From positions 1 to 50,687 of the forward strand of contig JAEEVG010000011.1 in assembly GCA_016290835.1 (NCBI GenBank): a stretch of 50,687 nt of DNA. The letters are read 5' to 3'. Shown here in pieces: positions 6,724 through 46,886 of this stretch. Numbering within the stretch: position 1 is the stretch's first letter; the number at the start of each line of letters is the position of its first letter. This DNA is from Bacteroidales bacterium (GTDB lineage Bacteria > Bacteroidota > Bacteroidia > Bacteroidales > UBA932). Below the pieces are notes generated by a model that was not told the origin of the DNA, did no database searches, and worked only from the letters and a program-made list of their open reading frames with translations. Position numbers and translations under genes: made by a program.

Positions 6724-6727
6724 GGTG

Positions 6728-6759
6728 CAAAGATAGCGTTTCCAACTTTAAATAACAAA
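6728..6759 (-). promoter_or_regulatory. Full Bacteroidota promoter (TTTG-N20-TATCTTTG) for the M23 operon
   Basis: On the minus strand TTTG (6759-6756) is followed after 20 bases by TATCTTTG (6735-6728). This matches the published Bacteroides -33/-7 consensus, TTTG and TAnnTTTG separated by 19-21 bases. It is the best complete promoter I found in the window. The box ends four bases before the ATG. Confidence 0.8.
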
Positions 6760-6842
6760 TTCTATCCCATTCAAGGCCATATCTTTAGGCTATCTCATCG
6801 GAAGTTCGCGCCCGCGCGTTTCGTTATTTGCAGGAAAATCAC

Positions 6843-6850
6843 TACTTTTG
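6843..6850 (+). promoter_or_regulatory. Promoter -7 box for alaS
   Basis: TACTTTTG fits TAnnTTTG and predicts a start of transcription near 6857, leaving a leader of about 18 bases before the ATG at 6875. A weak -33 element (TTCG at 6820-6823, 19 bases upstream) is possible. The box rules out the in-frame TTG at 6848 as a start codon. Confidence 0.6.
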
Positions 6851-6874
6851 TGGTTCGTTTATAATGTATTTACT

Positions 6875-9511: not shown

Positions 9512-9524
9512 TCTCCGCATCAGG

Positions 9525-11924
9525 ATGAAGAAACTCGACCGTTTCACGCTGAAGGCTTTCATCGGACCTTTCGTCGCGATTCTCTTCGTCGTGGTTTTCA
9601 TCCTGATGATGCAGACCCTCTGGCTGTATATCGACGAGCTCGTGGGCAAGGGCCTCGGCCTGCGTACCATCCTGGAATTCCTGTTCTGGGGCGTCTGCAG
9701 CCTGGCCCTCCCCCTCGCCCTGCCGCTCGCCACGCTGCTCGCCTCCACGATGACCATCGGCCAGCTCTCCGAGAACGGGGAACTGATGGCGATGAAGACC
9801 TCCGGCATCTCTTTCGGCCGCATCATCGCCCCGCTGGCCATCGCCGCGGCGCTGATCGCCGGCGGCACCTACGTCGTTTGCTCCCGCCTGGTCCCCTACG
9901 CCTTCAACCAGATCTATACCCTGCGCGACGACATCGCCCGCACCAAGGACGAAATCAAAATCCCCCCGGGGACCTTCTACAACGGCATCGAAGGCTACAT
10001 CCTGCGGGTCGGCGACCAGGACAAGAAGAGCAAGATGCTCTACGACGTCCAGGTCTATGACCATACGGCCCGCAAGGGCAACATCTCCGTAACCCTCGCG
10101 GACTCCGCCATCATCAAGATGGCCAAGAACAAGGAATACCTGACCTTCACGCTCTACAACGGGTCCACCTACGTGGAGGACAACACCCTCCGCTTCAACG
10201 ACACCTCCCTGGTCCTGCGGCACATCGACTTCGTCCGGCAGGACCTGCTGATCCCGCTCAAGAACTACAGTTTCGAGAAGTCGGACTCCGCCCGCTTCGA
10301 CGACCAGATCAAGACCAAGCAGATGGCCGAGCTCCGCCACCTCAGCGACTCGCTGTCCCACTACATGGATTCGCTGCACAATCTGCACTACGAGCAGATC
10401 CGCCGATCCACCATCTTCCTGGAGTTCAAGCAGTTGGACACGGCCACCCGCAATCCGGACCGCCCGATGTTCGACTACCCCGGCTACCTGACCTGGGATA
10501 GCCGGGACAGCCGTTCGATGGCCTACAGCACCGCGTCCTCCAATGCCACGCGGCTGAGCAGTGACATCAGCAACATGAAATTCGAGACCTACGACCAGAG
10601 CTACAACCTCCGGCAATCCGACCTGAGTTTCCTGGAGAAATTCGCCCAGGGGCTCGCCTGCCTGCTGCTCTTCTTCATCGGGGCGCCGGTGGGCTCGCTC
10701 GTCAAAAGCAAGCGCGGCGGCCTGGGCGTGGGACTCATCATCTCGGTGCTGTTCTTCGTCATCTACTACGTCGTCAACATCTCCGGCACCAAGCTGGCGC
10801 GCGACGGCGCCGTGCGGACGGACATCGGTGTGTTCATCTCGGCCGTGGTCATGGCTCCGATCGGAGCCTTCCTGACCTGGAAGGCCCTCAAAGACGCAGA
10901 ATTATTCAATATGGACCAGTTCAAGATCTGGCGGCGCAAGGCCTTCAGCAAGATCGAGCGCCTTTTCCGCCCCACCCGCATCGTCTATATGGGCACGCCC
11001 GAATTCGCCGTGAAGCCCCTGGACACCCTCGTCCAGGCCGGCTACAAGGTCGTGGGCGTGGTCACGGTGGCCGACAAGCCCAGCGGCCGGGGCCTCAAGA
11101 TGAACGAAAGCGCCGTCAAGCAATATGCGCGCGAGCACGGCATCCCGGTCCTGCAGCCCCTCAAGCTCAAGGATCCCGCCTTCCTGGAGGCCCTCGCCGC
11201 CTGGAAGGCCGACCTCTTCGTGGTCGTGGCCTTCCGCATGCTGCCCGAGGAGGTCTGGTCGATGCCCCGCCTGGGTACCTTCAACCTCCACGCCGCGCTG
11301 CTGCCGCAGTACCGTGGCGCCGCCCCGATCAACTGGGCCGTGATCAACGGAGAGAAAATCTCCGGCGTGACCACCTTCATGATCGACAAGAACATCGACA
11401 CCGGCGGGATCATCCTGCGCCAGGAATGCCGCATCCGGCCTGACGAGACGGCCGGCGAACTGCACGACGAGCTGATGGAGATCGGCTCCGACCTGGTTCT
11501 GCAGACCGTCGAGGGCCTGATCCAGCACAATGTCGAACTGCGTGTGCAGCGTTCCTTCATCCAGGGCTCCGAAGAGCTCAAGCCCGCACCCAAGATCACC
11601 CGGGAGCTCTGCCACATCGACTGGAACCAGCCCACCGGCACGGTCTACAACCTCATCCGCGGTCTCTCGCCCTACCCCACGGCTTTCGCCGAGCTGAAAT
11701 CGGGACAAGAGGTGCAGACCCTGAAGATTTTCCGGACCGAGAAGCGGGCGGACCTGCACGCGGCGCCGGGCACGATCCTCTCCGACGGCAAGACCTACCT
11801 GGCCATCGCCACCGCCGACGGCGCCCTGGAACTCACCGAACTCCAGCTCGCCGGCAAGAAACGGATGGGCGCCGAAGAATTCCTCCGCGGCTGGCGCGAC
11901 CCCGAGGCCTGGAGAGCCGCCTGA
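9525..11924 (+). CDS. Fusion: LptF/LptG-family permease joined to methionyl-tRNA formyltransferase
   Basis: A single 799-codon frame holding two complete proteins. Residues about 1-480 are a YjgP/YjgQ (LptF/LptG) permease of the lipopolysaccharide exporter: N-terminal membrane helices to about residue 125, a large periplasmic middle part, then three C-terminal helices at about 370-460. From residue 485 (RIVYMGTPEFAV) to the end is Fmt, which formylates initiator Met-tRNA. Fmt catalytic residues N587, H589 (NLHAALLP) and D625 (IDTGG) are present, as is the C-terminal OB-like domain. No stop codon or clear ribosome site separates them; an internal ATG (MDQFKIW, around 10911) could allow separate Fmt synthesis. 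Fmt would then sit at the cytoplasmic face of the membrane. A sequencing error removing a stop is a possible but unproven alternative. Confidence 0.9.
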   Translation: MKKLDRFTLKAFIGPFVAILFVVVFILMMQTLWLYIDELVGKGLGLRTILEFLFWGVCSLALPLALPLATLLASTMTIGQLSENGELMAMKTSGISFGRIIAPLAIAAALIAGGTYVVCSRLVPYAFNQIYTLRDDIARTKDEIKIPPGTFYNGIEGYILRVGDQDKKSKMLYDVQVYDHTARKGNISVTLADSAIIKMAKNKEYLTFTLYNGSTYVEDNTLRFNDTSLVLRHIDFVRQDLLIPLKNYSFEKSDSARFDDQIKTKQMAELRHLSDSLSHYMDSLHNLHYEQIRRSTIFLEFKQLDTATRNPDRPMFDYPGYLTWDSRDSRSMAYSTASSNATRLSSDISNMKFETYDQSYNLRQSDLSFLEKFAQGLACLLLFFIGAPVGSLVKSKRGGLGVGLIISVLFFVIYYVVNISGTKLARDGAVRTDIGVFISAVVMAPIGAFLTWKALKDAELFNMDQFKIWRRKAFSKIERLFRPTRIVYMGTPEFAVKPLDTLVQAGYKVVGVVTVADKPSGRGLKMNESAVKQYAREHGIPVLQPLKLKDPAFLEALAAWKADLFVVVAFRMLPEEVWSMPRLGTFNLHAALLPQYRGAAPINWAVINGEKISGVTTFMIDKNIDTGGIILRQECRIRPDETAGELHDELMEIGSDLVLQTVEGLIQHNVELRVQRSFIQGSEELKPAPKITRELCHIDWNQPTGTVYNLIRGLSPYPTAFAELKSGQEVQTLKIFRTEKRADLHAAPGTILSDGKTYLAIATADGALELTELQLAGKKRMGAEEFLRGWRDPEAWRAA

Positions 11925-11987
11925 GCTCCGCCGCCGATTTCCTTTCGCCTTTTTCCCGGATTTTAGGGCAATTTTCGATAAATCAAT

Positions 11988-11995
11988 TATATTTG
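11988..11995 (+). promoter_or_regulatory. Promoter -7 box for the polyferredoxin/aldo-keto operon
   Basis: TATATTTG fits TAnnTTTG, in the AT-rich 100-base gap after the permease-Fmt gene, and predicts a leader of about 20-25 bases before the ATG at 12025. No clear -33 TTTG is seen. Confidence 0.55.
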
Positions 11996-12024
11996 CACAA
12001 ATAAACACACCGTTTTTATCCACT

Positions 12025-13524
12025 ATGTTACGAAAAATCCGCATTGCCCTGGCAGCCGTCTTCTTCGTGGGGATCACCCTGCTGCTGCTGGGCATCGGCC
12101 AGCACTGGTGGGGATGGATGGCCAAACTCCAGTTCCTCCCCTCGGCCCTGGCGCTCAATTTCGCCGTGATCGCAGGCGTCCTGCTGCTCACCTTCGTTTT
12201 CGGCCGCATCTACTGCTCCGTCATCTGTCCGATGGGCGTGTTCCAGGATGTCGTCCTGTGGATCCGCCGCACCGGCGGGAAGTGCCTGCAGGATGCCCAG
12301 ACCCGTAAACTGAAGAAGCTCAAGGCGAGCGGTTCGGACAAGAAGCCGAAGGTTAAGCAGTACCTCAAGCGCTTCGACTATGTCAAGGAACACAAATGGG
12401 TGCGCTACTGCGTGCTGGTGCTCGCGCTCGTCTCGATCTTCGTCAGCGGCCAGATGCTGATCGCCCTGATCGCACCGTACAGCGCCTACGGACGCGTGGT
12501 GCGCAGCGTGGTCGGCCTGGTCTCCGGCCACTTCGTGCCGGCGCTGCTCATCACGGGCCTGGTGACCCTGGCGGTCATCTTCTGCTGCGCGTGGCTCTGG
12601 GGCCGCGAGTATTGCAATACCATCTGCCCCGTGGGCACCTTCCTGAGCCTGGTGAGCCGATTCGCGCTCTTCCGCCCGACCATCGAGTTGGACAAGTGCA
12701 TCAATTGCGCGCGCTGCGGAAAGGGCTGCAAGGCCTCCTGCATCGACACCAAGAACCACTGCATCGACTACTCCCGCTGCGTGGTCTGCTTCGACTGCCT
12801 GGACAACTGCTCCGAGAAGGCCCTGAAGTACCGCTTCGTGGGCTTCAAGGGTGCGAAGATCCAGGCGGAGCCCGCTCCCGCAGCCCCGAAGGAGGGTTCC
12901 GACGCCGGCCGGCGCGCCTTCCTCGCCACGACGGCCTTCGTGGGTGCCGCCGCCCTGTCCGCCCGGGCGCAGGACCACATGCAAGGCGGCTTCGCCGAGG
13001 TCGTCCCCAAGCAGAATCCCCCGCGCGGCGCCCGCCTGGTACCCTTCGGCGCCGGGAGCGCGGAGTCTTTCTACGCCCACTGCACCGCCTGCCAGCTCTG
13101 CGTAAGCGCCTGCCCCAACGGGGTGCTCCGTCCCTCGACGGACTTCGCTCACTTCCTCCAGCCCGAGATGGGCTATGAGAACGGTTACTGCCGTCCGGAG
13201 TGCAACGCATGCAGCCAGGTCTGCCCGGCCGGCGCCATCCGCCCGCTGAAACAGGGCGAGAAGCAGACGATCCAGATCGGCGTGGCCCACGTCAACCTCG
13301 AACTCTGCTTCGCCGCCAAGGGCGAGGCCAGTTGCGGCAACTGCGCCCACCACTGCCCGTCCGGAGCCATCCGGATGGTCAAGATGGACGGGATCCAGTA
13401 CCAGGTCCCGAGCGTCTCCGAGGAGCAGTGCATCGGCTGCGGCGCCTGCGAGTTCCTGTGCCCGTCCCGCCCGATCAGCGCCATCACCGTGCGCGCCAAT
13501 TCCGTTCACCACACCAACGCTTAA
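12025..13524 (+). CDS. Membrane polyferredoxin, NapH-like plus NapG-like with internal Tat-type motif
   Basis: A 499-residue electron-transfer protein. Residues 1-215 are NapH/YccM/CcoG-like: about five membrane helices with the CxxxCP motifs YCSVICPMG and YCNTICPVG. A cysteine-rich 4Fe-4S part follows (CINCARCGKGC; CVVCFDCLDNC). Then comes GRRAFLATTAFVGAAALSARA around residues 293-313, which looks like a Tat signal/anchor (RR-x-FL plus hydrophobic run) placed inside the protein. The last 185 residues are a NapG-like ferredoxin with CTACQLCVSACP, CNACSQVCP, CGNCAHHCP and CIGCGACEFLCP. I infer a quinol-to-periplasm electron relay. The partner is probably the next gene, five bases downstream. 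The electron acceptor is unknown: no nap or nrf reductase gene is in the window. Confidence 0.87.
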   Translation: MLRKIRIALAAVFFVGITLLLLGIGQHWWGWMAKLQFLPSALALNFAVIAGVLLLTFVFGRIYCSVICPMGVFQDVVLWIRRTGGKCLQDAQTRKLKKLKASGSDKKPKVKQYLKRFDYVKEHKWVRYCVLVLALVSIFVSGQMLIALIAPYSAYGRVVRSVVGLVSGHFVPALLITGLVTLAVIFCCAWLWGREYCNTICPVGTFLSLVSRFALFRPTIELDKCINCARCGKGCKASCIDTKNHCIDYSRCVVCFDCLDNCSEKALKYRFVGFKGAKIQAEPAPAAPKEGSDAGRRAFLATTAFVGAAALSARAQDHMQGGFAEVVPKQNPPRGARLVPFGAGSAESFYAHCTACQLCVSACPNGVLRPSTDFAHFLQPEMGYENGYCRPECNACSQVCPAGAIRPLKQGEKQTIQIGVAHVNLELCFAAKGEASCGNCAHHCPSGAIRMVKMDGIQYQVPSVSEEQCIGCGACEFLCPSRPISAITVRANSVHHTNA

Positions 13525-13529
13525 GCCCT

Positions 13530-14867
13530 ATGGACAGAAGAGAATTTTTGAAATCTGCAGGTATGGGCGCTGCTGCGCTCGGTGTTGCCGCCTGCGCCCC
13601 CGGAGCGGCCGAAAAGGTCTCCGGTTCGACCTTCCAAGGCAACAAGGAGCTCCAGGGAGAGATGCTCCAGAATTATCCCGGTATCGGCACCCTCGGCTAC
13701 GGCTGCATGCGCTGGCCGCAGAAGCGGGGCGAAGACGGCCGCAACCACATCGACCAGGAGGAGGTCAACCGCCTGGTGGAATTCGCCTTGGCGCACGGGA
13801 TCAACTATTTCGACACCTCCCCGGTGTATCTGGGCGGCGACAGCGAACGCGCTACCGCCGAGGCCCTCAACCGCTTCCCGCGCGAGAGCTGGAAGCTCGC
13901 GACCAAGCTCTCCATCTTCAACGCGACCTCCCTAGAGGACTGCATCAAGATGTACAAGAAGTCCTTCGAGATCTTCAAGACAGACTACATCGACTACTAC
14001 TTGCTGCACTCCATCAGCAGCGGTGAGGACTTCCAGAACCGTTTCGAGAACTGCGGCATGGTGGACTACCTCGTGAAAGAGCGCGAGGCCGGGCGCATCA
14101 AGCACCTCGGTTTCTCCTTCCACGGACACAAGGAAGGGTTCGACTTCATGATGCAGAAGCACGAGCAGTATCACTGGGACTTTATCCAGATCCAGATGAA
14201 CTATGTCGACTGGGAGCATCCGTCAGGACGCAACACCCGCGCCGACTACCTCTATGCCGAACTGGACAAGCGCGAGATTCCCATCGTGATCATGGAGCCC
14301 CTGCGCGGCGGCGCGCTGGCCAGTATCCCCGCCGACCTCGCCGACCGGCTCAAGGAGCGCGAACCCCAGCGTTCCATCGCCTCCTGGGCCTTCCGCTACG
14401 TGGGCAGTTTCCCGCGCGTGATGGTCGCCCTGAGCGGCATGACCTATATGGAGCACTTGCAGGACAACCTGGAGAATTTCCTGGATTTCCAGCCGCTCAA
14501 GGACGAGGAGAAACAGTTGCTCTGGGATATCGCCGACCGCATGGAGAACTATCCGCTGGTGCCCTGTACGGGCTGCCAGTACTGCATGCCCTGCCCCTAC
14601 GGCATCAACATCCCGGGCATCTTCAAGTTCTACAACGACAATGTCGTCGCCGGGACCTATGTGGAGAGCAAGGAGCAGAAGGGCTATGCCCGCGCCCGCC
14701 GCAAGTACCTGCTGGCCTACGACGAGGCCATCCCGACGGTACGCCAGGCCGACCATTGCATCGGCTGCCGCAAGTGCGAGCGGGATTGTCCGCAGAACAT
14801 CCGCATTCCCAACCAGCTGCGGCGCATCGATGCCTACATCGAGAGCCTCAAGCAGGAGACGCTCTAG
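13530..14867 (+). CDS. Tat-exported aldo/keto reductase with C-terminal ferredoxin domain
   Basis: A 445-residue fusion of an aldo/keto reductase TIM barrel with a 4Fe-4S tail. The N-terminus MDRREFLKSAGMGAAALG is a Tat signal, and AACAPG after it is a plausible lipobox (Cys21), so the enzyme may be a periplasmic or surface lipoprotein. The barrel has the DTSPVYLGGDSE and KHLGFSFHGH regions of this oxidoreductase family. Near the end CTGCQYCMPCP and CIGCRKCERDCP would bind two clusters. The ATG lies five bases after the polyferredoxin stop, which suggests the two act together; the substrate is unknown. A much longer in-frame extension upstream runs through the preceding gene and was rejected. 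The stop shares CTAG with convergent trmB. Confidence 0.9.
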   Translation: MDRREFLKSAGMGAAALGVAACAPGAAEKVSGSTFQGNKELQGEMLQNYPGIGTLGYGCMRWPQKRGEDGRNHIDQEEVNRLVEFALAHGINYFDTSPVYLGGDSERATAEALNRFPRESWKLATKLSIFNATSLEDCIKMYKKSFEIFKTDYIDYYLLHSISSGEDFQNRFENCGMVDYLVKEREAGRIKHLGFSFHGHKEGFDFMMQKHEQYHWDFIQIQMNYVDWEHPSGRNTRADYLYAELDKREIPIVIMEPLRGGALASIPADLADRLKEREPQRSIASWAFRYVGSFPRVMVALSGMTYMEHLQDNLENFLDFQPLKDEEKQLLWDIADRMENYPLVPCTGCQYCMPCPYGINIPGIFKFYNDNVVAGTYVESKEQKGYARARRKYLLAYDEAIPTVRQADHCIGCRKCERDCPQNIRIPNQLRRIDAYIESLKQETL

Positions 14868-15955
14868 GATTCTTCTTCAGCGTGGAGTTTCTGCCGGCGG
14901 GTTTCGGCAGAATCGTGACCAAAGAGCTGGCGCGGGCCTTCGGACTCGCGCCACTTTTTTGTGTCGAATTCTTCGGGATCGCGGGGGCTGACATAGGGGC
15001 CGTCGTGGTCGATCACGAACGACAGGTACGTAATCGGATACCCCTGCTCCAGGAACAGTTGCTCATAAAAAGTCTGGACTTCCCTTACTTCCGGTCGCAT
15101 AGCTCCCGTAAGCAAGGGAAGCCCTTCGGGTCCCTTCACCCCCTGCACCCCCTCAAGGGGGATGGCCGGATAATCGCTGTCGCGATCCGGCCTATCCTCA
15201 GCAACGGTAGTATTTTGCGAGCCTGCTGCGGATCTCCCGTAAAGGTCCGTGGTCTGGCAGAGGATGCGGAGGCCGTTGGCGGCGCAGACGGCGCGGGTGT
15301 ATTCGTGCAGGAAACGCGAATCGGTCTTGAGATGGACGATTCCGCCGGGCCGCATAAAACTGCGATAGCGCTCCAGGAAAAGCGGCGACGTCAGGCGGGA
15401 ATTCTCGCTGCGATACTGGGGATCGGAAAAAGTCAGCCAGATCTCGGAAACTTCCCCGGGCGCGAAAAAAGCCGTGATGAACTCGATGCGCGTCCGCAGG
15501 AAAGCGACATTGGGAAGCGCATGTTCAGTGGCATATTTTGCTCCCTTCCAAAGACGTGCGCCCTTGATGTCCACCCCGATATAATTCCGCCCCGGATCCC
15601 GCTCCGCCAGCGCAATCGTATACTCACCCTTCCCGCAACCCAACTCCAAAATAACCTCTTCGTTCATACTTCTCTCAGCCTGGGTGCCGCTCACCCCGGA
15701 AAAACCGTGGCCGCCCGTGGCCTCGTGAACGGGAGGGGCCCAAGCGTCAGCTTGGGAGGGAAGAGCGCGAAGCGCGAAGTTATTCCGGGGTGAGGCGGCA
15801 CCCGGCAGGGAATCAAAGAAGGCGTTCCAGTGGCCTTTGACGGCGTGGTCGCGGAGGTGGAAGTAGCCGTCGGCGAGGAGCTCCGCAGCCGAGGGCTGGA
15901 GCAGACAGGCGAAGGTCTCGTTCTCCGCAAACTTCCTGAGCTTATCGTGTCCCAT
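14864..15955 (-). CDS. trmB: tRNA (guanine-N7)-methyltransferase TrmB with two in-frame inserts
   Basis: SAM-dependent enzyme making m7G46 in tRNA. The start MGHDKLRKFAEN and KGHWNAFF match Bacteroidota TrmB. VILELGCGKGEYT is the SAM motif, then GVDIKGARLW, FFAPGEVSEIWLTF and HLKTDS. The usual PDP motif reads SDP here (TFSDPQ). At 363 residues it is about 100 longer than expected. The excess is two blocks: roughly residues 51-91, encoded by a 122-base element with terminal inverted repeats, and roughly residues 253-295, encoded by three consecutive hairpins. Both blocks are low in recognisable similarity and sit at loops, so the enzyme could still fold. The start at 15955 overlaps the gldH-like stop by 14 bases and ends the trxA-to-trmB unit. 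Confidence 0.9.
   Translation of the reverse strand: MGHDKLRKFAENETFACLLQPSAAELLADGYFHLRDHAVKGHWNAFFDSLPGAASPRNNFALRALPSQADAWAPPVHEATGGHGFSGVSGTQAERSMNEEVILELGCGKGEYTIALAERDPGRNYIGVDIKGARLWKGAKYATEHALPNVAFLRTRIEFITAFFAPGEVSEIWLTFSDPQYRSENSRLTSPLFLERYRSFMRPGGIVHLKTDSRFLHEYTRAVCAANGLRILCQTTDLYGRSAAGSQNTTVAEDRPDRDSDYPAIPLEGVQGVKGPEGLPLLTGAMRPEVREVQTFYEQLFLEQGYPITYLSFVIDHDGPYVSPRDPEEFDTKKWRESEGPRQLFGHDSAETRRQKLHAEEES
15114..15192. repeat. Triple-hairpin repeat block inside trmB
   Basis: Three adjacent inverted repeats: AAGGGA/TCCCTT (15114-15136) with CCC/GGG nested in it, CCCCCTcaAGGGGG (15148-15161), and GGCCGGAT/ATCCGGCC (15164-15171 and 15185-15192). They fall inside trmB exactly where the protein has about 43 extra residues. 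This looks like a REP- or RPE-like inserted element. The ends are not obvious, and I found no second copy in the window. Confidence 0.6.
15682..15803. repeat. 122-bp element with terminal inverted repeats inside trmB
   Basis: The left end GGGTGCCGCTCACCCCGG (15682-15699, continuing AA) is mirrored by the right end at 15783-15803, which matches over 20 bases with one extra C. Between them is a CCCAAGC/GCTTGGG hairpin with a four-base loop (15739-15756) and a GCGCGAAGCGCG run. The element lies between the KGHWNAFF and VILELGCG segments of TrmB and is translated in frame. A small non-autonomous palindromic element is the simplest reading; no transposase is nearby. Confidence 0.7.
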
Positions 15956-16373
15956 CCTGTCTCTTGCAAACAACCCCGAACCCGAGCAACTCCTCCCCCG
16001 TCCCCACCGGCCGCACACTCAACTGCCACTCCCCCGCCTCCGCCGGCACCATCCCGCTGCGATACAACTCCCGGCTCCCGAGCACATCCACCCGGCGCAT
16101 ATAGACCGTCTCCGAAAAACCCTCGCCCGAAGGAGAAAGCCACTGCACATTGAGCTGGATATCATCCAGGGCGTGCTTCCGGGGCCGGCTGTAAAACCAG
16201 AAATCATAGGCGGCCGTCGTGTCCGTCAGCGGAAGTCGATAGATATAGACCCCGTCCCGGGCGGCGGAACGCCGGACGAACAGTTCCACGCCGTCGGGCT
16301 CCGAACAGGCGGCGAGCCCCCATCCGCAGACGAGGACCGCAAACAGCGCGAGCAGCGGACGGCGCGCCTTCAT
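15942..16373 (-). CDS. GldH-like lipoprotein
   Basis: A 143-residue putative lipoprotein. The signal peptide MKARRPLLALFAVLVCGWGLAAC ends in a lipobox, so Cys23 would be lipidated, and the mature part looks like one beta-sandwich domain (Tyr/Asp/Trp-rich strands, GEWQLSVRP near the end). The GldH assignment rests mainly on context: in Bacteroidota gldH follows the PSP1-domain gene and holB, as here, and size and signal fit. GldH belongs to the gliding/type IX secretion gene set in Flavobacterium, but many non-gliding Bacteroidales keep it with unknown role. The ATG shares one base with the ricT-like stop (TAATG); a longer frame upstream runs through that gene and was rejected. Confidence 0.72.
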   Translation of the reverse strand: MKARRPLLALFAVLVCGWGLAACSEPDGVELFVRRSAARDGVYIYRLPLTDTTAAYDFWFYSRPRKHALDDIQLNVQWLSPSGEGFSETVYMRRVDVLGSRELYRSGMVPAEAGEWQLSVRPVGTGEELLGFGVVCKRQDGTR

Positions 16374-17641
16374 TATTCGGAGGCTTTCGGTCCCTTCTGC
16401 GGAGCACGTCCGCCCGGACGGCCCTTGCCACGCGGACGACCGCCGCCCTGGGCCCCCTGCTGGCCTTGCGCGGCCTGGGCCTGCTGCCCGCCCTGCGGCT
16501 TGGCACCGCGGCCCTTGGAGCGGTTCTTGCCCCGGGACTTCTTGCGCTTGGGTGCATCGAAACGGCTGATGCTGTCGTCGCCCACGGCGGTCACGAACTC
16601 GGGCACATACGGCTCCGGCTCCGTTCGCAGGGACTCCGGCTTCTCTCCGGCGCGGTTCATCTCCAGGATGTCCCACACCTCGGCGGCATCGAGCGGAAAG
16701 AGTTCCGCATCGGAAGTCTTATCGTAGGAAAAATACATCACCTCGCGCAGGATGTCGGTCTTGCGCAGGTAGGCCAGTCCGTCCTCGAACACCAGCGGCT
16801 CGGTGATCTTGGGGATGCGGGATTGGGCATCGAGATAGTTGGCCACCTCGTAGTTGAGGCAGCACTTGAGCTTTCCGCACTGACCGGCGAGTTTCTGCGG
16901 ATTCAGGGAGAGGTCCTGGCAGCGTGCGGCCGAGGTGGAGATGCTCTGGAACGAAGAAATGTAGTTGGCGCAGCAGAGCTCACGGCCGCAGATGCCCAGT
17001 CCGCCGATGAGCCCGGCCTCCTGCCGCGCTCCGATCTGCTTCATTTCGATGCGGATGCGGAACTCCTCGGCGAAGACCTTGATCAGCTGCCGGAAATCCA
17101 CGCGGCCGTCGGCGATGTAGTAGAAAATGGCCTTGGAACCGTCGCCCTGGAACTCCACGTCCCCGATCTTCATCTCCAGGCCCATCTCCGCCGCGATCCG
17201 GCGCGCCTTGATCATCGTATCCTGCTCGCGGGCGATGGCCTCCTGCCATTTCAGGATGTCGAGCTGGCGGGCTTTGCGGTAAATCTTCTTGAACTGGTAG
17301 CTCTCCGGATCGATCCCGCGGGTACGCATCTGGCGCCCCACGATCGGTCCCTCCAGGGTCACGATGCCGAGGTCCTGCCCGGTGACGGCTTCGACCACCA
17401 CCAGGTCGCCCTGCCGGACGTTCTGGGGGGAATCATTGATATAGAAGCCCTTACGGGTATTCTTGAAGCGCACCTCGAAGATGCCCCGGCAGGTGCCGTC
17501 TGCGGCCTCCTTGAGCCAGTTGTAGTCGCCGAGCTTGCAGCAGCCCGCCCGGTAGGTGCAGCGGGTCTCGCCCGAGGCGTCCCCGTGCGTGACCACGCAG
17601 CCGCGCGAGCAATCGTATTGGATGGATTCGTTCGTCGTCAT
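16373..17641 (-). CDS. PSP1-domain protein, RicT/YaaT-like
   Basis: A 422-residue cytoplasmic protein. The PSP1 region includes CGRELCCANYISSF, LSLNPQKLAGQCGKLKCCLNYE and other cysteines matching RicT, which in Bacillus forms the Fe-S-containing RicAFT complex with effects on RNase Y and mRNA processing. The usual MAK before Q-x-LSLNP is replaced by SAAR-C here. The last about 55 residues are low complexity, rich in Lys, Arg, Gly, Gln and Pro, and may bind RNA. Whether it controls RNA decay in this phylum is unproven. It overlaps holB by four bases (ATGA) and the gldH-like gene by one. Confidence 0.88.
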   Translation of the reverse strand: MTTNESIQYDCSRGCVVTHGDASGETRCTYRAGCCKLGDYNWLKEAADGTCRGIFEVRFKNTRKGFYINDSPQNVRQGDLVVVEAVTGQDLGIVTLEGPIVGRQMRTRGIDPESYQFKKIYRKARQLDILKWQEAIAREQDTMIKARRIAAEMGLEMKIGDVEFQGDGSKAIFYYIADGRVDFRQLIKVFAEEFRIRIEMKQIGARQEAGLIGGLGICGRELCCANYISSFQSISTSAARCQDLSLNPQKLAGQCGKLKCCLNYEVANYLDAQSRIPKITEPLVFEDGLAYLRKTDILREVMYFSYDKTSDAELFPLDAAEVWDILEMNRAGEKPESLRTEPEPYVPEFVTAVGDDSISRFDAPKRKKSRGKNRSKGRGAKPQGGQQAQAAQGQQGAQGGGRPRGKGRPGGRAPQKGPKASE

Positions 17642-18621
17642 AACAATAAATACATTCGGTCGGCCAGGTCCGTGAAGAGTATCTTCAGGTTGACATTGCG
17701 GCCGATCAGGGTCTGGGCCCGGTCCAGAACCGCAAGGGCCTGACGCGGGAAGGTCTTGGGGCAGGCAGCTGCCCAGCGGCGGACCTCCGGGGAGCTCTCA
17801 GCCCCGGCGGAGACTCCCTGCTGGCAGCGGAACAACTCCCGCAGCCGCTCCGCTGCAAAGATACAAAAAGCTTTGGCTTGTTCGCGCGTAAGCGAGCCGG
17901 CGATTTGCTCGGAGACATCCAGTGCGGAGAGCAGGTCCTTCTTCAGCAGCGCATCCATCAGTTCGTCCAGCAGATGCGCCTCGGCGAAGTCCACCCCGCC
18001 CGCAGCCCCCTCCGGCCGGAGCCGGATGCGCTGGCAGCGAGAAAGGACCGTAGGGAGCACCCGCTCGAGCTGGTGCGAGATCAGCACGAACTGGGTCTGT
18101 GCGGGCGGCTCTTCGATCATCTTGAGCAGACGGTTCGCCGCCTCGACGTTCAGGCGCTCCGGCAGGTAGATCAGCACGGCGCGCCAGCCGCCCTCCAGGG
18201 CGGTCAGGGAGAGTTTCTCCAGCAGGCGACGTGCCTCGGACACGGCAATGATGGAGTTCTTGCCCTCGATGCCGAGGGCCTCCATCAAGTCCGCCTCGCG
18301 GAAGGAAGGATGCTCCGTCGCCAGGCGCCGGAAAGGCTCCAGGTACTGCTCCGAGAGCATGCCTGCGGCGGTCGGGAAAACCAGATGCACATCCGGGTGG
18401 ATGAGCTTGGAAATCTTGCTGCAGCAGGGACAGCGGCCGCAGGAATCCCCGTCGCGGCGCTCCTTGCAGAAAAGATATTGCAAGAAAGCGAGCGAGAGCG
18501 GGAAGGCGCCCCCGCCGTCTTCCTCGTGGAAGAGGATGGCGTGCGGGACGCGGTCCTCGTCCACCATCCCGGCGAGCGCCCGTTTGATCTCGGAATTACC
18601 CTGCACCTGCGCGAATGTCAT
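17638..18621 (-). CDS. holB: DNA polymerase III delta' subunit (HolB)
   Basis: A 327-residue clamp-loader subunit. It starts MTFAQVQGNSEIKRALAGMV, and VPHAILFHEEDGGGAF sits where the P-loop would be, degenerate as is normal for delta'. The zinc-binding cysteines CKERRDGDSCGRCPCC are present, followed by the AAA+ core with RLNVEAANRLLKMIEEPP, QFVLISH and LPTVLSRCQRI. The ATG at 18619-18621 overlaps the polyprenyl synthase stop by four bases (ATGA). A frame continuing far upstream is open but runs antisense-like through the neighbouring gene and was not used. It feeds directly into the ricT-like gene, a common order in Bacteroidota. Confidence 0.93.
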   Translation of the reverse strand: MTFAQVQGNSEIKRALAGMVDEDRVPHAILFHEEDGGGAFPLSLAFLQYLFCKERRDGDSCGRCPCCSKISKLIHPDVHLVFPTAAGMLSEQYLEPFRRLATEHPSFREADLMEALGIEGKNSIIAVSEARRLLEKLSLTALEGGWRAVLIYLPERLNVEAANRLLKMIEEPPAQTQFVLISHQLERVLPTVLSRCQRIRLRPEGAAGGVDFAEAHLLDELMDALLKKDLLSALDVSEQIAGSLTREQAKAFCIFAAERLRELFRCQQGVSAGAESSPEVRRWAAACPKTFPRQALAVLDRAQTLIGRNVNLKILFTDLADRMYLLL

Positions 18622-42399: not shown

Positions 42400-43275
42400 A
42401 TGATACGCTATTTCCGGGTTGCCGGGCTGTATTTCAGCCTCGACCTGCCGGAAGCCTTTCCGGCAGGGGAACAGCTGCACAATTATAATCCTTTCGAACA
42501 GGACGGGGCCCCCGAAGAGCTCCTCTTCGACCTGGTCCTGACCTCCGTTCCCCCGACCGGGGAGCGGGAGGAACTGTATGTCGGCCACCAGGAGAAGGGC
42601 GAGCCCGTGGTCAATCTCTACCGGACGCCGGAGGGATTCCTCGCGGAATTCGCCCCCTCACCCCGGTTCCCGGTCTGCGGACAATTGACGATGAGCTCCG
42701 ATTTCCGCCACGGGCGGCTCTTCCTCACGCCTGAAAGCCCGGCACAGGCCTTCGCCATCAACAACGCCCTGATGCTGCTGTTCGCCTTCCGCTCCGCGAA
42801 GAAGTCCGCCCTCGAAATGCACGCCTCGGTGGTGATGCACGGGGGCCGCGGATTCCTGTTCCTGGGACGCAGCGGGACGGGCAAGAGCACCCACAGCCAG
42901 CTCTGGCTCAAGTACATAGACGGCACGGAACTGCTCAATGACGACAATCCCGTGCTGCGTGTCGTGGACGGATGCGTCCGGGTGTACGGCACCCCCTGGA
43001 GCGGCAAGACGCCCTGCTACAAAGCCCAGGATGTCCCCGTGGGAGCCATCGTCCGCCTGAGCCAGGCGAAAGAGAATTGCATCACCCGCCTCGGCACCGT
43101 GGGCGCCTATGCCTCCGTCATGTCCTCCTGCTCGGGTTTCCGCCCGTTCCGGGAGATTACCGACGCCCAGCACGAGACACTTTCCGCAATCGCCATGGGC
43201 GTGCCTTGTTATCAGTTGGACTGCCTGCCGGACGAAGCGGCCGCGCGGCTTTGTCAAAGTACGGTCGATGGATAA
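42400..43275 (+). CDS. HPr-kinase-like / PEP-carboxykinase-fold kinase of a peptide-type cassette
   Basis: A 291-residue protein. The last 150 residues have the HprK-like core: Walker A GRSGTGKST (residues 156-164), LLNDDNPVLRV and VYGTPWSGKTPCY. Such kinases occur in carbohydrate regulation (HprK) and, in peptide gene clusters, as lasso-peptide tailoring kinases that phosphorylate a precursor. The first 130 residues are a variable domain of unknown type. Its end overlaps the peptidase gene by eight bases, and PqqD-like and ABC genes follow, so a role in modifying a secreted peptide is inferred from context. HPr itself is not encoded nearby. Start ATG at 42400; an in-frame frame upstream runs through lepA and was rejected. 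Confidence 0.82.
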   Translation: MIRYFRVAGLYFSLDLPEAFPAGEQLHNYNPFEQDGAPEELLFDLVLTSVPPTGEREELYVGHQEKGEPVVNLYRTPEGFLAEFAPSPRFPVCGQLTMSSDFRHGRLFLTPESPAQAFAINNALMLLFAFRSAKKSALEMHASVVMHGGRGFLFLGRSGTGKSTHSQLWLKYIDGTELLNDDNPVLRVVDGCVRVYGTPWSGKTPCYKAQDVPVGAIVRLSQAKENCITRLGTVGAYASVMSSCSGFRPFREITDAQHETLSAIAMGVPCYQLDCLPDEAAARLCQSTVDG

Positions 43276-43690
43276 GCGCACCCTGCCCAACGACATCCTC
43301 CTGGGGGAGGTGGCGGCCGTCCTGCGCGAAGGCCGCGAGGCGGTCATCACGCCCACGGGGAACAGCATGCTCCCTTTTATCCGCGGCGGACGGGACCGCG
43401 TGGTGCTGCGCAAGCAGGATGAAATCGCCGTCGGGGATATCGTCCTGATACACATCGGCGGCCGCTATATCCTGCACCGCGTCATCGGGATCAACGGAGA
43501 GCAGATTACCCTGATGGGAGACGGTAACCTCAAGAGCGTCGAACACGGCACCCGCGCGGAGATCATCGGCACCGTTACGGAGATCATCCGGCCCGACGGC
43601 CGCAGCGTCAAGCCGGGGACGGGCCGCTTCTGGCGGTTCCTCAAGCCTTTCCGGCGTTATATTTTGTTTATTTACAGAAGATTGATATGA
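43268..43690 (+). CDS. S24/S26-type signal-peptidase-like protein, Ser-His form
   Basis: A 140-residue protein resembling signal peptidase I core, but short. Ser33 in GNSMLPFI matches the nucleophile motif; H70 in YILHRVIG and D85 in MGDGN fit the SipW/ER-type Ser-His arrangement in place of the Ser-Lys pair. The C-terminal 30 residues are basic with a short hydrophobic run (FRRYILFIYRRLI), and there is no N-terminal membrane anchor. It may trim a leader peptide or act as a degenerate chaperone. It overlaps both neighbours (8 bases and ATGA). Start at 43268 chosen by the overlap; a longer upstream frame lies in the kinase gene. Confidence 0.78.
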   Translation: MDKRTLPNDILLGEVAAVLREGREAVITPTGNSMLPFIRGGRDRVVLRKQDEIAVGDIVLIHIGGRYILHRVIGINGEQITLMGDGNLKSVEHGTRAEIIGTVTEIIRPDGRSVKPGTGRFWRFLKPFRRYILFIYRRLI

Positions 43691-43953
43691 AACTGCTTGA
43701 TGGACTGACCCTGCGGAAACTCGGCCGGGAATACATTGTCACGGGAGACGGTCCCTCCCGGATTGATTTCAGCAAAGTGGTGTCGATGAACGGCACCGCG
43801 GCTTATCTGTTCGAGCAACTCGCCGGGCGCGATTTCTCCCTGGAGGATATGGTCGCCCTGCTGACCGAGCGCTATGACGTCTCCGAACAGACCGCCCGCG
43901 ACGATGCGGCGCGTCTGCTCGAAAACTGGGCCGGCGCCGGCCTGCTCGGATAA
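43687..43953 (+). CDS. PqqD-like peptide-recognition protein
   Basis: An 88-residue winged-helix protein. Its wing and helices (LRKLGREYIV, KVVSMNGTAAYLFEQLAGRDFS, ALLTERYDVSEQTARDDAARLLENWAGAGLL) match the PqqD/RRE fold that binds the leader of ribosomal peptides in PQQ, lasso and other RiPP systems. The classic PqqD partner PqqE (radical SAM) is absent. Overlaps the peptidase by four bases (ATGA) and the ABC gene by one (TAATG). Confidence 0.85.
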   Translation: MKLLDGLTLRKLGREYIVTGDGPSRIDFSKVVSMNGTAAYLFEQLAGRDFSLEDMVALLTERYDVSEQTARDDAARLLENWAGAGLLG

Positions 43954-45587
43954 TGATTCCGATCCGCCAGATCCTCTCCGGACTTGCTCCGATGGCCCGC
44001 CCTTCCCGCGGAAGGGGGTTGGTCAGCGTGTTCATCGGTCTGGTACGCGTCGCAGCCTCCCTGGGTTTCGTGTGGTGCTGCAAGCGCCTGGTGGACATCG
44101 CCACGGGCCACTCCGACGCACCGCTCCCCCTGTACATCGGCATCTTGCTCGGCATCATGCTATTGCAGCTGATCTGCTCGGTGAGCGCTTCCGCGTGGGA
44201 GAGTTACAACCTCGTCCGAACCGGCAACGAACTCCGCGAGAGCACGTTCTCCACCGTGCTCCGCAGCACCTGGACCGGCCGGGAGCGTTTTCGCAGCGGG
44301 GATGCCGTCAACCGCCTCGAGGAAGATGTACGCGTGGTCACGGACCTGGTCTGTTCCCGTTTCCCCGAGACGCTCATCACCCTGATCCAGCTGTTAGCCG
44401 CCTCCGTGTACTTGCTCTGCATGGCCCCCACCCTGCTCTGGGTTCTGGTGATTCTGATGGTCGCCGCCGTCCTGGGCTCCCGGATGTTCTTCCGCAAGCT
44501 CCGAGAACTGACCGCCATCATCCGGAAGCAGGATGCCGAAGTACAGCAGCTGATGCAGGAGAACCTCCAGAAACGCATCGTGGTGCTGACCCTGATCGGC
44601 ACCCGCAGGGTGCTGGAACGCCTGGGCTGGCTGCAGAAAGACATCCTCGGCCACACGGTCCTGCGCCTGAAATACAACTCCGTCGCCCGTGCCTTCATGC
44701 ATTTCGGCTTCATGAGCGGATATGCCGCCGCCTTCCTCTGGGGCGTGTTCGGCATCCGCAGCGGGGTCGTCACCTATGGTATGATGACCGCTTTCCTCCA
44801 GCTCGTGGGACAGGTCCAGCGGCCGATTTTCGATCTGGCCCGGCAGATTCCCGCCTTCATCCACGCCACCACCTCGGTGGAGCGGCTGATGGAGCTCCAG
44901 GCCCTCGAGCAGGAACCGGAGGAGGCGCCCGTCCGCCTGGACGGCGCACCCGGCATCCGGGTCACGGACGTGGACTTCTCCTATCCCGGCCGCCCCGAGC
45001 GCATCCTGGATCATTTCTGTTGGGATTTCACCCCCGGCAGCACCACCGTGGTGATGGGTCCCACGGGCGCCGGCAAGAGTACGCTGAGCCGGCTGGTGCT
45101 GGGCCTGCTCCGTCCAGACGGCGGATCCGTGGAGATCTATGGCCCGGAAGGCAGTTTCCCGGCCGGACCCGCCGTCCGCGGCAACTTCCTCTACGTCCCC
45201 CAGGGCAATTCCCTGCTCAGCGGCACCATCCGCCAGAACCTGCTGCTCGCCAGGCCCGACGCCGATGAGGAGCAGCTCCGGGAAGCGCTTCACACGGCGG
45301 TCGCCGACTTCGTCTTCGAGCTGCCCGACGAGCTGGATACGCCCTGCGGCGAGGAAGGTACCGGCCTGAGCGAAGGCCAGTGCCAGCGCATCGCCATCGC
45401 CCGCGCCCTGCTGCGCGAAGGCGGAATCCTGATTCTCGACGAGGCCACCTCCGCCCTTGACGCCGAGACCGAAGAACTCCTGCTGGAGCGCATTTTCGCG
45501 CGGCACCACGGCAAGAAGACCCTGCTGTTCATCTCCCACCGCGACGCCGTTTCGACCCGGGCCGACCAAGTCCTGCACCTCGACTGA
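43953..45587 (+). CDS. ABC exporter, permease fused to ATPase
   Basis: A 544-residue half-transporter. Six membrane helices lie in residues 1-320, and the ATPase has Walker A GPTGAGKS (369-376), signature LSEGQ (472-476; LSGGQ is usual) with CQR after it, and Walker B ILILDEATS, plus the D-loop SALD. There is no N-terminal C39 peptidase. It resembles the peptide exporters of lasso and bacteriocin systems (and MsbA-like lipid exporters). With the three preceding genes it suggests export of a small modified peptide, but lipid or siderophore export cannot be excluded. It ends in TGATG with the next gene. Confidence 0.88.
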   Translation: MIPIRQILSGLAPMARPSRGRGLVSVFIGLVRVAASLGFVWCCKRLVDIATGHSDAPLPLYIGILLGIMLLQLICSVSASAWESYNLVRTGNELRESTFSTVLRSTWTGRERFRSGDAVNRLEEDVRVVTDLVCSRFPETLITLIQLLAASVYLLCMAPTLLWVLVILMVAAVLGSRMFFRKLRELTAIIRKQDAEVQQLMQENLQKRIVVLTLIGTRRVLERLGWLQKDILGHTVLRLKYNSVARAFMHFGFMSGYAAAFLWGVFGIRSGVVTYGMMTAFLQLVGQVQRPIFDLARQIPAFIHATTSVERLMELQALEQEPEEAPVRLDGAPGIRVTDVDFSYPGRPERILDHFCWDFTPGSTTVVMGPTGAGKSTLSRLVLGLLRPDGGSVEIYGPEGSFPAGPAVRGNFLYVPQGNSLLSGTIRQNLLLARPDADEEQLREALHTAVADFVFELPDELDTPCGEEGTGLSEGQCQRIAIARALLREGGILILDEATSALDAETEELLLERIFARHHGKKTLLFISHRDAVSTRADQVLHLD

Positions 45588-46024
45588 TGGAGTGGTTGGA
45601 GAGCCTCGGCCTGCTGGGCTTGTTTCTCGGGAGCGCGCTGGCCGCATCGATATTCCCTTTCAGTTCCGATGTCCTGTACATCGCCGTCCTGGCCACCACC
45701 GGCAAGGGGGTCGGCTGTTTCCTCGCGGCCACGAGCGGCAGTTGGGTGGGCAGCCTGTTCACCTACTGGCTCGGCTGGCTCGGGAAAATGGAATGGATCG
45801 AAAAATGGCTCAAGGTTTCGCGCGAGAAACTCGACAAGCAGCAGGCCAAGGTGCAGAAATACGGGGTCTGGCTGGCTCTGCTGAGCGGAGTCCCGGTCAT
45901 CGGGGACATCCTGGTGCTCGCGCTGGGCTTCTATAAGACCGCCCCCGGATGGACCTTCCTGATGCTGCTGATCGGCAAGATCCTCCGTTTCCTGTTCTGG
46001 AACCTGATCGTGGGGCTGTTCTAG
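45587..46024 (+). CDS. YqaA/DedA-like small membrane protein
   Basis: A 145-residue membrane protein with four or five helices and the SNARE-associated (DedA/YqaA) look: FPFSSDVLYIAVLATTG, SWVGSLFTYWLGWLGK, KYGVWLALLSGVPVIGDILVLALGF. DedA proteins help maintain membrane potential and lipid flipping in E. coli. It shares one base with the ABC gene (TGATG), so it belongs to this run, which may be only positional. The stop shares CTAG with the convergent DUF456 gene. Confidence 0.86.
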   Translation: MEWLESLGLLGLFLGSALAASIFPFSSDVLYIAVLATTGKGVGCFLAATSGSWVGSLFTYWLGWLGKMEWIEKWLKVSREKLDKQQAKVQKYGVWLALLSGVPVIGDILVLALGFYKTAPGWTFLMLLIGKILRFLFWNLIVGLF

Positions 46025-46589: not shown

Positions 46590-46886
46590 ATGAGCGAAGA
46601 ACCCAAAAAGAAAGCCATGGACCTCAACGGTGATGGCAAAGTGACCTTCGACGAGGCCGTCCAGTACACCAAAGAAAAAGCCGCTGAATTTGCCGACAAG
46701 GCGAAGGTGAAAGCCGTGGAGTTCAGCGAAGAGGCCAAGGTCAAGCTCGGCGAACTGAAGGTCGAGGCCGCCGAAGTGGCCGCCAAGGCCAAGGTGAAAG
46801 CCGCAGAGATCAGCGAGGAAGTCAAAGACATCTACGACGACACCAAGGAGAAAGTCAAAGACTACGTCGCCAGCAAGAAAGCCTGA
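46590..46886 (+). CDS. Small protein with EF-hand loop and amphipathic-helix repeats
   Basis: A 98-residue, signal-less protein. Residues 11-22 (DLNGDGKVTFDE) are a textbook 12-residue EF-hand calcium loop: D1, N3, D5, G6, V8 and E12 all present. From about residue 26 to the end is one long, highly charged helix with repeated segments such as KAKVKAVEFSEEAKVKLGELK, periodic like LEA or apolipoprotein helices. A single EF-hand followed by such a helix is common in short Bacteroidota proteins. Role unknown: it might coat membranes or respond to calcium. It has a strong own promoter box and terminator, so it is a single, probably well expressed gene. Confidence 0.82.
   Translation: MSEEPKKKAMDLNGDGKVTFDEAVQYTKEKAAEFADKAKVKAVEFSEEAKVKLGELKVEAAEVAAKAKVKAAEISEEVKDIYDDTKEKVKDYVASKKA

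What the first reader, a model, noticed from the sequence alone, without database searches (positions are those of the whole stretch)
42400..46024. Kinase / Ser-His peptidase / PqqD / ABC cassette without a visible precursor or cyclase, riding behind tkt-lepA
Four overlapping genes (HprK-like kinase, short signal-peptidase-like protein, PqqD-like protein, ABC exporter) form the accessory half of a ribosomal-peptide system: leader recognition, possible phosphorylation, leader removal and export. The parts that define known classes are missing: no radical SAM enzyme, no lasso B2 protease or cyclase C, no lanthipeptide synthetase and no C39 domain in the exporter. No independent promoter is seen, so the cassette is probably on the tkt-lepA transcript, which would tie it to housekeeping expression. 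The small peptide must be encoded elsewhere, or the system handles another substrate. This is the best candidate for an undescribed system in the window.
Basis: partly seen in the sequence, partly recalled or inferred. Interest (0 to 1): 0.72.

Follow-up and report, generated by a model that had tools for sequence, protein, structure and literature searches.

The report
RiPP cassette with dispersed precursor genes
The four genes look like shared tools for trimming, phosphorylating and exporting small peptides, and the missing peptide genes appear to be scattered in many copies around the same genome, often just in front of genes for surface lipoproteins, which gives a little-understood peptide system a testable set of substrates.

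Summary
In detail: an HprK-like kinase, a Ser-His signal-peptidase-like protease, a PqqD-like RRE and a C39-less ABC exporter form an overlapping operon (42400-45587). The order is conserved (46 of 80 loci) in differing chromosomal contexts; tkt-lepA is one of them. The set resembles the LPP (linear polyphosphorylated peptide) machinery published for Bacillota in May 2026 (PMC13381572), so it is not categorically new. What appears new is the substrate side: about 40-aa ORFs with an RRE-type YxxP leader and a hypervariable acidic tail. They lie beside the cassette in several families, but in the window's genome they are dispersed (17 matches); the 14 whose surroundings I read are each directly upstream of a lipoprotein-like gene. 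Across 393 genomes of the order, 18 of 19 peptide-bearing genomes carry the strong kinase (32 of 393 do), p = 1.6e-21. Best reading: a trans-acting, LPP-like system in Bacteroidota serving many precursors. Binding, phosphorylation, cleavage and function are inferred. Against it: within the genus peptides and kinase are not associated (17 of 28 against 4 of 8), and 14 of 32 strong-kinase genomes show no peptide at the cut-off.

The parts
42400..43275 (+). HprK-like kinase (LppK/PadeK-like); Walker A GRSGTGKST, NDDNP
   Evidence: H141, K162, D181, D182 invariant in 20 aligned sequences (window included); the His-Lys-Asp-Asp motif of lasso precursor kinases is described in PMC9266682 (passages)
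43268..43690 (+). Ser-His signal-peptidase-like (S24/S26) protease, LppS-like; no long N-terminal hydrophobic stretch by eye
   Evidence: S33, H70, D85, E92 invariant in 21 aligned sequences (window included); AF2 model pLDDT 86.6; Foldseek hits LexA/UmuD' (E<=1e-3), then SpsB and SipA (E about 2e-3)
43687..43953 (+). PqqD-like discrete RRE (LppB / lasso B1-like)
   Evidence: AF2 model pLDDT 88.1; the best six PDB chains are lasso B1 proteins solved with leader peptide (5v1u, 5v1v, 6jx3; E 2.4e-4 to 2.3e-3)
43953..45587 (+). MsbA/CydC-like ABC exporter without C39 peptidase domain (LppD-like)

Best explanation
The cassette is an LPP-like RiPP machine of Bacteroidota that works in trans. The PqqD-like RRE binds the YxxP leader of a multigene family of about 40-aa precursors scattered in the genome. 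The HprK-like kinase phosphorylates the core, most likely the Ser at +19 from the leader Tyr (the position that lines up, one residue offset, with LPP core Ser3). The Ser-His protease removes the leader shortly before that Ser, and the ABC protein exports the linear product. In part of the lineage an NTP_transf_5 enzyme may further modify the phosphate. Shown here: gene content, conservation, the precursor family, its co-occurrence with kinase and protease across the order, its adjacency to the cassette in several families, and its position upstream of lipoprotein-like genes. Inferred: binding, phosphorylation, cleavage site, export and biological role.
For: Order KIN-S26-PqqD-ABC contiguous in 46 of 80 loci, with NTP_transf_5 added or in place of ABC in 9 more. 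Co-occurrence over 393 genomes: peptides in 19, strong kinase (E<1e-35) in 32, both in 18; p=1.6e-21, or 15/1/13/360 and p=1.4e-18 without the own genus; 0 of 17 weak-kinase genomes have peptides; the 10 families with peptides all lie among the 14 with strong kinase. The 29 genomes with a strong protease hit (E<2e-17) all have the strong kinase, and 18 of those 29 have peptides. Precursor beside the cassette in different layouts: one related clade of 8 loci plus L192, L196, L203, L204, G054, and Phocaeicola massiliensis PEP-lipoprotein-PqqD-NTP-ABC-KIN-S26. The RRE model resembles leader-bound lasso B1 proteins; Tyr, Pro and Leu of YxxPxL are what B1 proteins need (PMC10368454, passages). The enzyme set and YxxP leader match LPP, where kinase activity, RRE-dependent cleavage and Ser3 phosphorylation were demonstrated (PMC13381572).
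Against: Inside the genus there is no association: peptides at E<=1e-3 in 17 of 28 kinase-positive and 4 of 8 kinase-negative genomes (p=0.44; 9 of 13 and 2 of 3 among genomes at least 85% complete). Over the order, 14 of 32 strong-kinase genomes gave no peptide at E<=1e-3; one of these, G390, has a divergent one (E 0.002) beside its cassette. G303 has 3 peptides without kinase, protease or RRE (89% complete); G032 has 18 peptide matches at E<=1 (4 at E<=1e-3) and an RRE but no kinase or protease (91% complete); G007, G014 and G018 (61, 70, 88% complete) have peptides and none of the three proteins. The peptide profile was built largely from peptides near cassettes and in the own genus, so it may favour that lineage. 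Ser at +19 is present in only 36 of 58 peptides. No complex could be modelled and nothing was expressed.
Confidence: 0.75

Rival explanations
1. The small ORFs are regulatory upstream ORFs (translation attenuators) of the lipoprotein genes and have nothing to do with the cassette; they share its distribution only through common ancestry.
For: In the own genome 14 of 14 read peptides lie -1 to 78 bp upstream of a lipoprotein-like gene; G303 has peptides without kinase, protease or RRE; no peptide-kinase association inside the genus.
Against: The conserved part is a protein motif matching a known RRE-binding leader; co-occurrence with kinase plus protease spans 10 families; 12 of 52 peptides, the five of family f107 among them, have no same-strand gene called within 250 bp (at least one of the 12, in L061, is a missed gene call); the precursor sits between cassette genes in L196 and heads the row in P. 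massiliensis; leader codon differences between copies A and B are 5 synonymous against 2 non-synonymous.
Confidence: 0.13
2. The cassette is the remnant or accessory part of a normal lasso peptide pathway whose B2 protease and cyclase lie elsewhere.
For: RRE, kinase and NTP_transf_5 are typical of paeninodin- and Bsf-type lasso clusters (PMC9266682, PMC10368454, passages).
Against: PF13471 (B2) has no match in the own genome and matches 3 of 41 genomes searched, 1 of 24 same-genus; the cassette carries its own protease of another type, found strongly in 29 of the 32 strong-kinase genomes.
Confidence: 0.03
3. The kinase, RRE and NTP_transf_5 act on polysaccharide or cell-envelope synthesis, and the peptides are only neighbours.
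For: In L203 the genes sit among exopolysaccharide-type genes, and in L054/L055 beside a mannose-1-phosphate guanylyltransferase-like gene (identified by eye); LPP clusters in Bacilli lie in capsule loci.
Against: Such neighbours were not a recurring feature of the gene maps; an RRE and a leader-peptidase-like protease have no clear role in that reading.
Confidence: 0.05

Closest known systems
Linear polyphosphorylated peptides (LPP), P. alginolyticus lpp cluster (PMC13381572, 2026)
   Same: SpI-like Ser-His protease, discrete RRE, HprK-like kinase, MsbA-like exporter, NTP transferase in part of the loci, no cyclase in the cassette, precursor with YxxP leader and variable C terminus.
   Different: Bacteroidota, whereas the paper calls LPP restricted to Bacillota; in the own genome precursors dispersed in many copies instead of 1-3 per cluster; consensus after YxxP differs (roughly EVVEVxxEGIICxS against VLxHQxIxFETxxS); precursors next to lipoprotein-like genes; NTP transferase not in the window cassette.
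Paeninodin/pseudomycoidin/Bsf-type phosphorylated lasso peptides
   Same: HprK-like precursor kinase, discrete PqqD-like B1, NTP transferase in some, ABC exporter, Y/WxxP leader.
   Different: No match to the B2 cysteine protease family in the own genome; no cyclase noticed beside the cassette; protease of serine type.
HprK-related kinase A and SynChlorMet (ScmC) cassettes (NCBIfam TIGR04352, TIGR04249)
   Same: HprK-like kinase; that these sit with PqqD-like proteins is recalled, not tested.
   Different: Kinase scores 20.9 of 200 and 22.6 of 125 bits, far below the cut-offs.

Membership tests
LPP | SpI/SipW-like serine leader peptidase with Ser-His(-Asp) | tested here: met
   S33, H70 and acidic D85/E92 invariant in 21 aligned sequences; model matches LexA/UmuD' and signal peptidases. 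Likeness of fold and residues only; activity untested
LPP | Discrete RRE | tested here: met
   PF05402 56.7 bits; model closest to lasso B1 with leader
LPP | HprK-like kinase | tested here: met
   Invariant H141, K162, D181, D182; HprK/PEPCK-type hits, all below cut-off
LPP | MsbA-like exporter without peptidase domain | tested here: met
LPP | NTP transferase in the cluster | tested here: not met
   Absent from the window cassette; an NTP_transf_5 gene lies at C44 beside the second PqqD; present in the cassette run of 9 of 80 loci
LPP | Precursor with YxxP leader and variable C terminus | tested here: met
   59 unique peptides, 58 analysed. Seeds were picked with a Y..P pattern, but the 7-member cluster found by sequence similarity alone also has YxxP
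LPP | Precursor genes (1-3) inside the cluster | tested here: not met
   None in the window operon; 17 matches elsewhere in the genome; met in some other lineages
LPP | RRE clade shared with Bacillota LPP | not tested
   LPP protein sequences of the paper were not obtained; one Butyrivibrio plasmid cluster of similar content was seen
LPP | Phosphorylation of core Ser3, RRE-dependent cleavage, linear product | not testable with these tools
   needs expression and mass spectrometry
Lasso peptide | B2 transglutaminase-like protease (PF13471) | tested here: not met
   0 matches in the own genome
Lasso peptide | Asn-synthetase-like cyclase C | not tested
   none noticed beside the cassette; no genome-wide search was run
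HprK-related kinase A system | Kinase above TIGR04352 cut-off | tested here: not met
   20.9 of 200 bits

The most novel reading that the evidence does not exclude
One trans-acting phosphopeptide machine serves a large set of core-variable precursors, each encoded with its own surface lipoprotein as a ligand-partner or toxin-immunity-like pair, with recombination swapping core plus lipoprotein behind a shared leader: a peptide-based recognition system of gut Bacteroidales.
Probability: 0.28. Interest if true: 0.92.

Novelty: new variant of a known kind. Interest (0 to 1): 0.77.

Why it matters
LPP was published in 2026 with its biological role unknown and described as restricted to Bacillota. 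If this reading is right, related chemistry occurs in many families of Bacteroidales, including named human-associated species (Phocaeicola massiliensis; Prevotella sp. oral taxon 299, where the peptide hit is marginal), with precursors that searches confined to the gene cluster would miss because they lie away from the enzymes. Every precursor is a directly testable substrate, and the neighbouring lipoproteins give a concrete clue to what such peptides may do at the cell surface.

Tried and rejected
PqqD as a scan query in genome contigs found nothing; the kinase profile worked. PDB sequence searches with the peptide profile, PqqD and the kinase profile gave no useful relative. Pfam and NCBIfam gave no hit for the six peptides tried. 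That core and lipoprotein always co-vary was tested by Mantel: in the own genome core-lipoprotein r=0.81 (p=2e-4, n=13; the strong pairs come from two paralogue groups of three) and leader-lipoprotein r=0.15 (p=0.11); in 25 peptides from other loci it was the reverse (leader-lipoprotein r=0.66, core-lipoprotein r=0.01), the twelve top pairs being from one clade of related loci. It is kept only as a lead. A pattern for lipoprotein signals flagged 26 of 40 close downstream genes against 115 of 1036 background genes; several unflagged ones look like lipoproteins with a mis-called start, but I did not count these. A pattern search of 15 cassette loci for other YxxP small ORFs gave four hits that look like chance or parts of other genes. 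A within-genus association of peptides and kinase was not found.
Full report
WHAT IS IN THE WINDOW. Four overlapping + strand genes follow lepA by 4 bp: kinase 42400-43275, protease 43268-43690, PqqD 43687-43953, ABC 43953-45587. The next gene, 45587-46024, is a VTT-domain protein and is not part of the set. The four genes overlap, so there is no unassigned space between them for a precursor.

CONSERVATION. The single kinase sequence finds relatives in 31 of 61 genomes, own included: 28 of 36 of the same genus and 2 of 24 other genomes of the order; the profile gives the same tally. In 46 of these 80 the run is KIN-S26-PqqD-ABC; in 6 KIN-S26-PqqD-NTP; in 3 KIN-S26-PqqD-NTP-ABC; the other 25 are shorter, rearranged or incomplete, and I did not sort how many are cut by contig ends (gene calls by my own script). 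Some of the 80 are the same organisms as G-numbered genomes (equal contig lengths). The flanks differ: lepA upstream in 5 of 80, divergent DUF4290-like neighbour in 17 of 80. So the four-gene unit is what is conserved.

PARTS. Kinase: H141, K162, D181, D182 invariant in 20 aligned sequences. Protease: S33, H70, D85, E92 invariant in 21; model pLDDT 86.6, best hits LexA and UmuD', then SpsB and SipA. RRE: model pLDDT 88.1, best six hits are lasso B1 chains solved with leader peptides. Solved structures by sequence gave nothing useful.

THE PRECURSOR FAMILY. Gene maps of the 80 loci showed a 40-46 aa ORF after NTP_transf_5 in one clade, found by similarity alone (7 members; an eighth, L128, was called with a longer start), and a motif scan found similar ORFs near other cassettes. 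A leader HMM found 20 ORFs at E<1 in 1.8 Mb and none in reversed controls; 18 of the 20 had been used to build it. Iteration over all loci then held gave 64 hits at E<1e-3, none in the reversed control (one there at E<1); 59 unique, 58 long enough to analyse. Relative to Tyr0 (the set was anchored on YxxP): Glu+6 in 42 of 58, Val+7 in 40, Ser+19 in 36. The tail is rich in Gly, Asp and Glu (14, 13 and 13%), with 2.3% Lys+Arg and 0.1% Cys. LPP leaders read YxxPxVLxHQxIxFETxxS, with the Tyr at -16, and Ser3 of the core is phosphorylated (PMC13381572; sections 6, 7, 9, 11 and 12 read). By eye, our (C/A/L/M)-(Q/A)-Ser at +17 to +19 lines up with LPP core positions 1-3, one residue offset.

DISPERSED IN THE OWN GENOME. 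The A6 profile finds 17 matches at E<=0.001 in G000, one with an in-frame stop. I read the surroundings of 14, the interrupted one included; the other three (C72, C5, C112) were not fetched. In all 14 the next gene is on the same strand, -1 to 78 bp away; its N terminus passes a lipoprotein-signal pattern in 11 and reads as one by eye in the other 3. Nine own-genome downstream proteins were scanned with Pfam: one BspA-type LRR, one RTX-repeat and one DUF3344 above the cut-off, the other six without a hit above it; a tenth (L003) had none. A fifteenth, weaker match (E 0.036) is not followed by a same-strand gene. Across all loci, of 52 unique peptides 40 have a same-strand gene within 250 bp. 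The five peptides of family f107 lack this neighbour.

CO-OCCURRENCE ACROSS THE ORDER. In 393 genomes at least 85% complete, the kinase profile hits 49 at E<=1e-15: 32 strong (E<1e-35) and 17 weak. That split was made after seeing the E-values, which leave a gap between 1.4e-36 and 2.5e-26. The protease cut (E<2e-17, 29 of 45 genomes matched at E<=1e-6) was also set after the fact, with a smaller gap (next 6.7e-16). The peptide profile hits 19 genomes. Overlap with strong kinase 18; the exception is G303. Fisher p=1.6e-21, or 1.4e-18 without the own genus. By family, 10 of 10 peptide families lie among 14 kinase families; the p of about 2e-11 assumes about 110 families in all. The three strong-kinase genomes without a strong protease hit (G233, G315, G362) have no peptide hit. 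These searches scored only part of the first-look candidates in some genomes (up to 6, 21 and 10 for the kinase, peptide and protease profiles), so counts are lower bounds. Genomes are not independent, and the profile was trained mostly on cassette neighbours and same-genus peptides, so the p-values overstate; the family count is the safer figure.

NO ASSOCIATION INSIDE THE GENUS. Among the 36 same-genus genomes, peptides at E<=1e-3 (profile A5) occur in 17 of 28 with the kinase and in 4 of 8 without; p=0.44. Among those at least 85% complete it is 9 of 13 and 2 of 3, p=0.71. Many of these genomes are incomplete (58-98%), and the genus as a whole carries both, but this is a result against a strict dependence.

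ADJACENCY OUTSIDE THE GENUS. G054 (peptide about 0.1 kb from the kinase match), G250 (PEP-lipoprotein-KIN-S26-PqqD-NTP-ABC, L204), G390 (NTP-KIN-S26-PEP-lipoprotein-gene-PqqD-ABC, L196), G270 (PEP between KIN and S26, 3.6 kb from KIN, L203), G354 (L192, same layout as the clade above). A case not used in building the profile: the Phocaeicola massiliensis record OY725995.1 has a 38-aa peptide (E 1e-7 locally, 2.7e-8 with A6), then a lipoprotein-like protein of 1089 aa, PqqD, NTP, ABC, KIN and S26 within 8.0 kb, all on one strand. In Prevotella sp. oral taxon 299 (1.77 Mb record) the only hit is marginal (E 0.04) but of the same form and is followed 250 bp on by a frame of at least 381 aa. A Butyrivibrio fibrisolvens plasmid (Bacillota) carries kinase, a 57-aa ORF with YxxP, PqqD and S24/S26 peptidase in a row.

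RECOMBINATION LEAD. Peptides A and C of the own genome share 23 identical and 1 synonymous leader codons and nearly the same 80 upstream bases, but 13 of 15 compared core codons differ in amino acid; A's core resembles that of D (10 identical, 4 synonymous, 3 changed), whose leader differs. Core similarity follows the lipoprotein in the own genome (Mantel r=0.81) but not in the other loci, where the leader does. This is a lead, not a rule.

EXCEPTIONS. G032: 18 peptide matches at E<=1 (4 at E<=1e-3), a lone PqqD, no kinase or protease, 91% complete. G303: 3 peptides, none of the three proteins, 89% complete. G007, G014 and G018: 3, 1 and 2 matches at E<=1 with best E 1e-4, 7e-4 and 8e-5, none of the three proteins. 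G001 and G020: kinase, no peptide at E<=1. G010: a protease hit (E 2e-37) without kinase or RRE hit, 63% complete. Fourteen of 32 strong-kinase genomes show no peptide at the cut-off.

LITERATURE. Eight searches over an open-access library; I saw nothing in their listings that ties this peptide family or Bacteroidota to LPP. PMC13381572 has no word beginning 'Bacteroid' in its main text and states that LPP is restricted to Bacillota. PMC10352776 (Bacteroidales RiPP mining) was seen in passages only, as were PMC9266682, PMC7533575, PMC10368454 and PMC12710340. Subscription papers and supplements were not searched.

VERDICT. A real, conserved, LPP-like RiPP cassette in Bacteroidota; new variant of a known kind, not filed as a member of LPP because two of its features (local precursors, NTP transferase in the cluster) are not met in the window. 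The new element is a trans-acting arrangement with many dispersed precursors next to lipoprotein-like genes.

Noticed in passing
L057 (G013:C3) 9065-11035: One 656-aa open frame joins a TruB-like pseudouridine synthase to the HprK-like kinase (by eye), next to an rpiB-like gene; in G034 (L059) the TruB-like and kinase ORFs are separate, within about 3 kb.
   Followed up: no
L174 5802-5933 and 14920-15045 (own genome, contig C13): Two precursor copies share upstream DNA and leader but have unrelated cores, with the break at the leader-core border.
   Followed up: partly
L062 (G030:C30) 5071-9923: A second kinase with a short PqqD sits behind a protein with a DxSxS (vWA-like, by eye) stretch and a lipoprotein-like gene; a 58-aa ORF upstream of the latter may be a divergent precursor. 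No protease or exporter was called there.
   Followed up: no
L203 (G270:C2) 6020-18452: Cassette genes are interleaved with exopolysaccharide-type genes (sugar transferase, Wza-like and Wzc-like proteins, by eye) and a precursor.
   Followed up: partly
L229 (Butyrivibrio fibrisolvens pNP243) 8657-8830: A 57-aa Cys-rich ORF with a YxxP N terminus lies between a kinase and PqqD-S24/S26: a possible Bacillota LPP precursor on a plasmid.
   Followed up: partly
46590-46886: Small + strand protein of repeated KAxEF/KVKAAE-like stretches with an EF-hand match below the Pfam cut-off near its N terminus.
   Followed up: no
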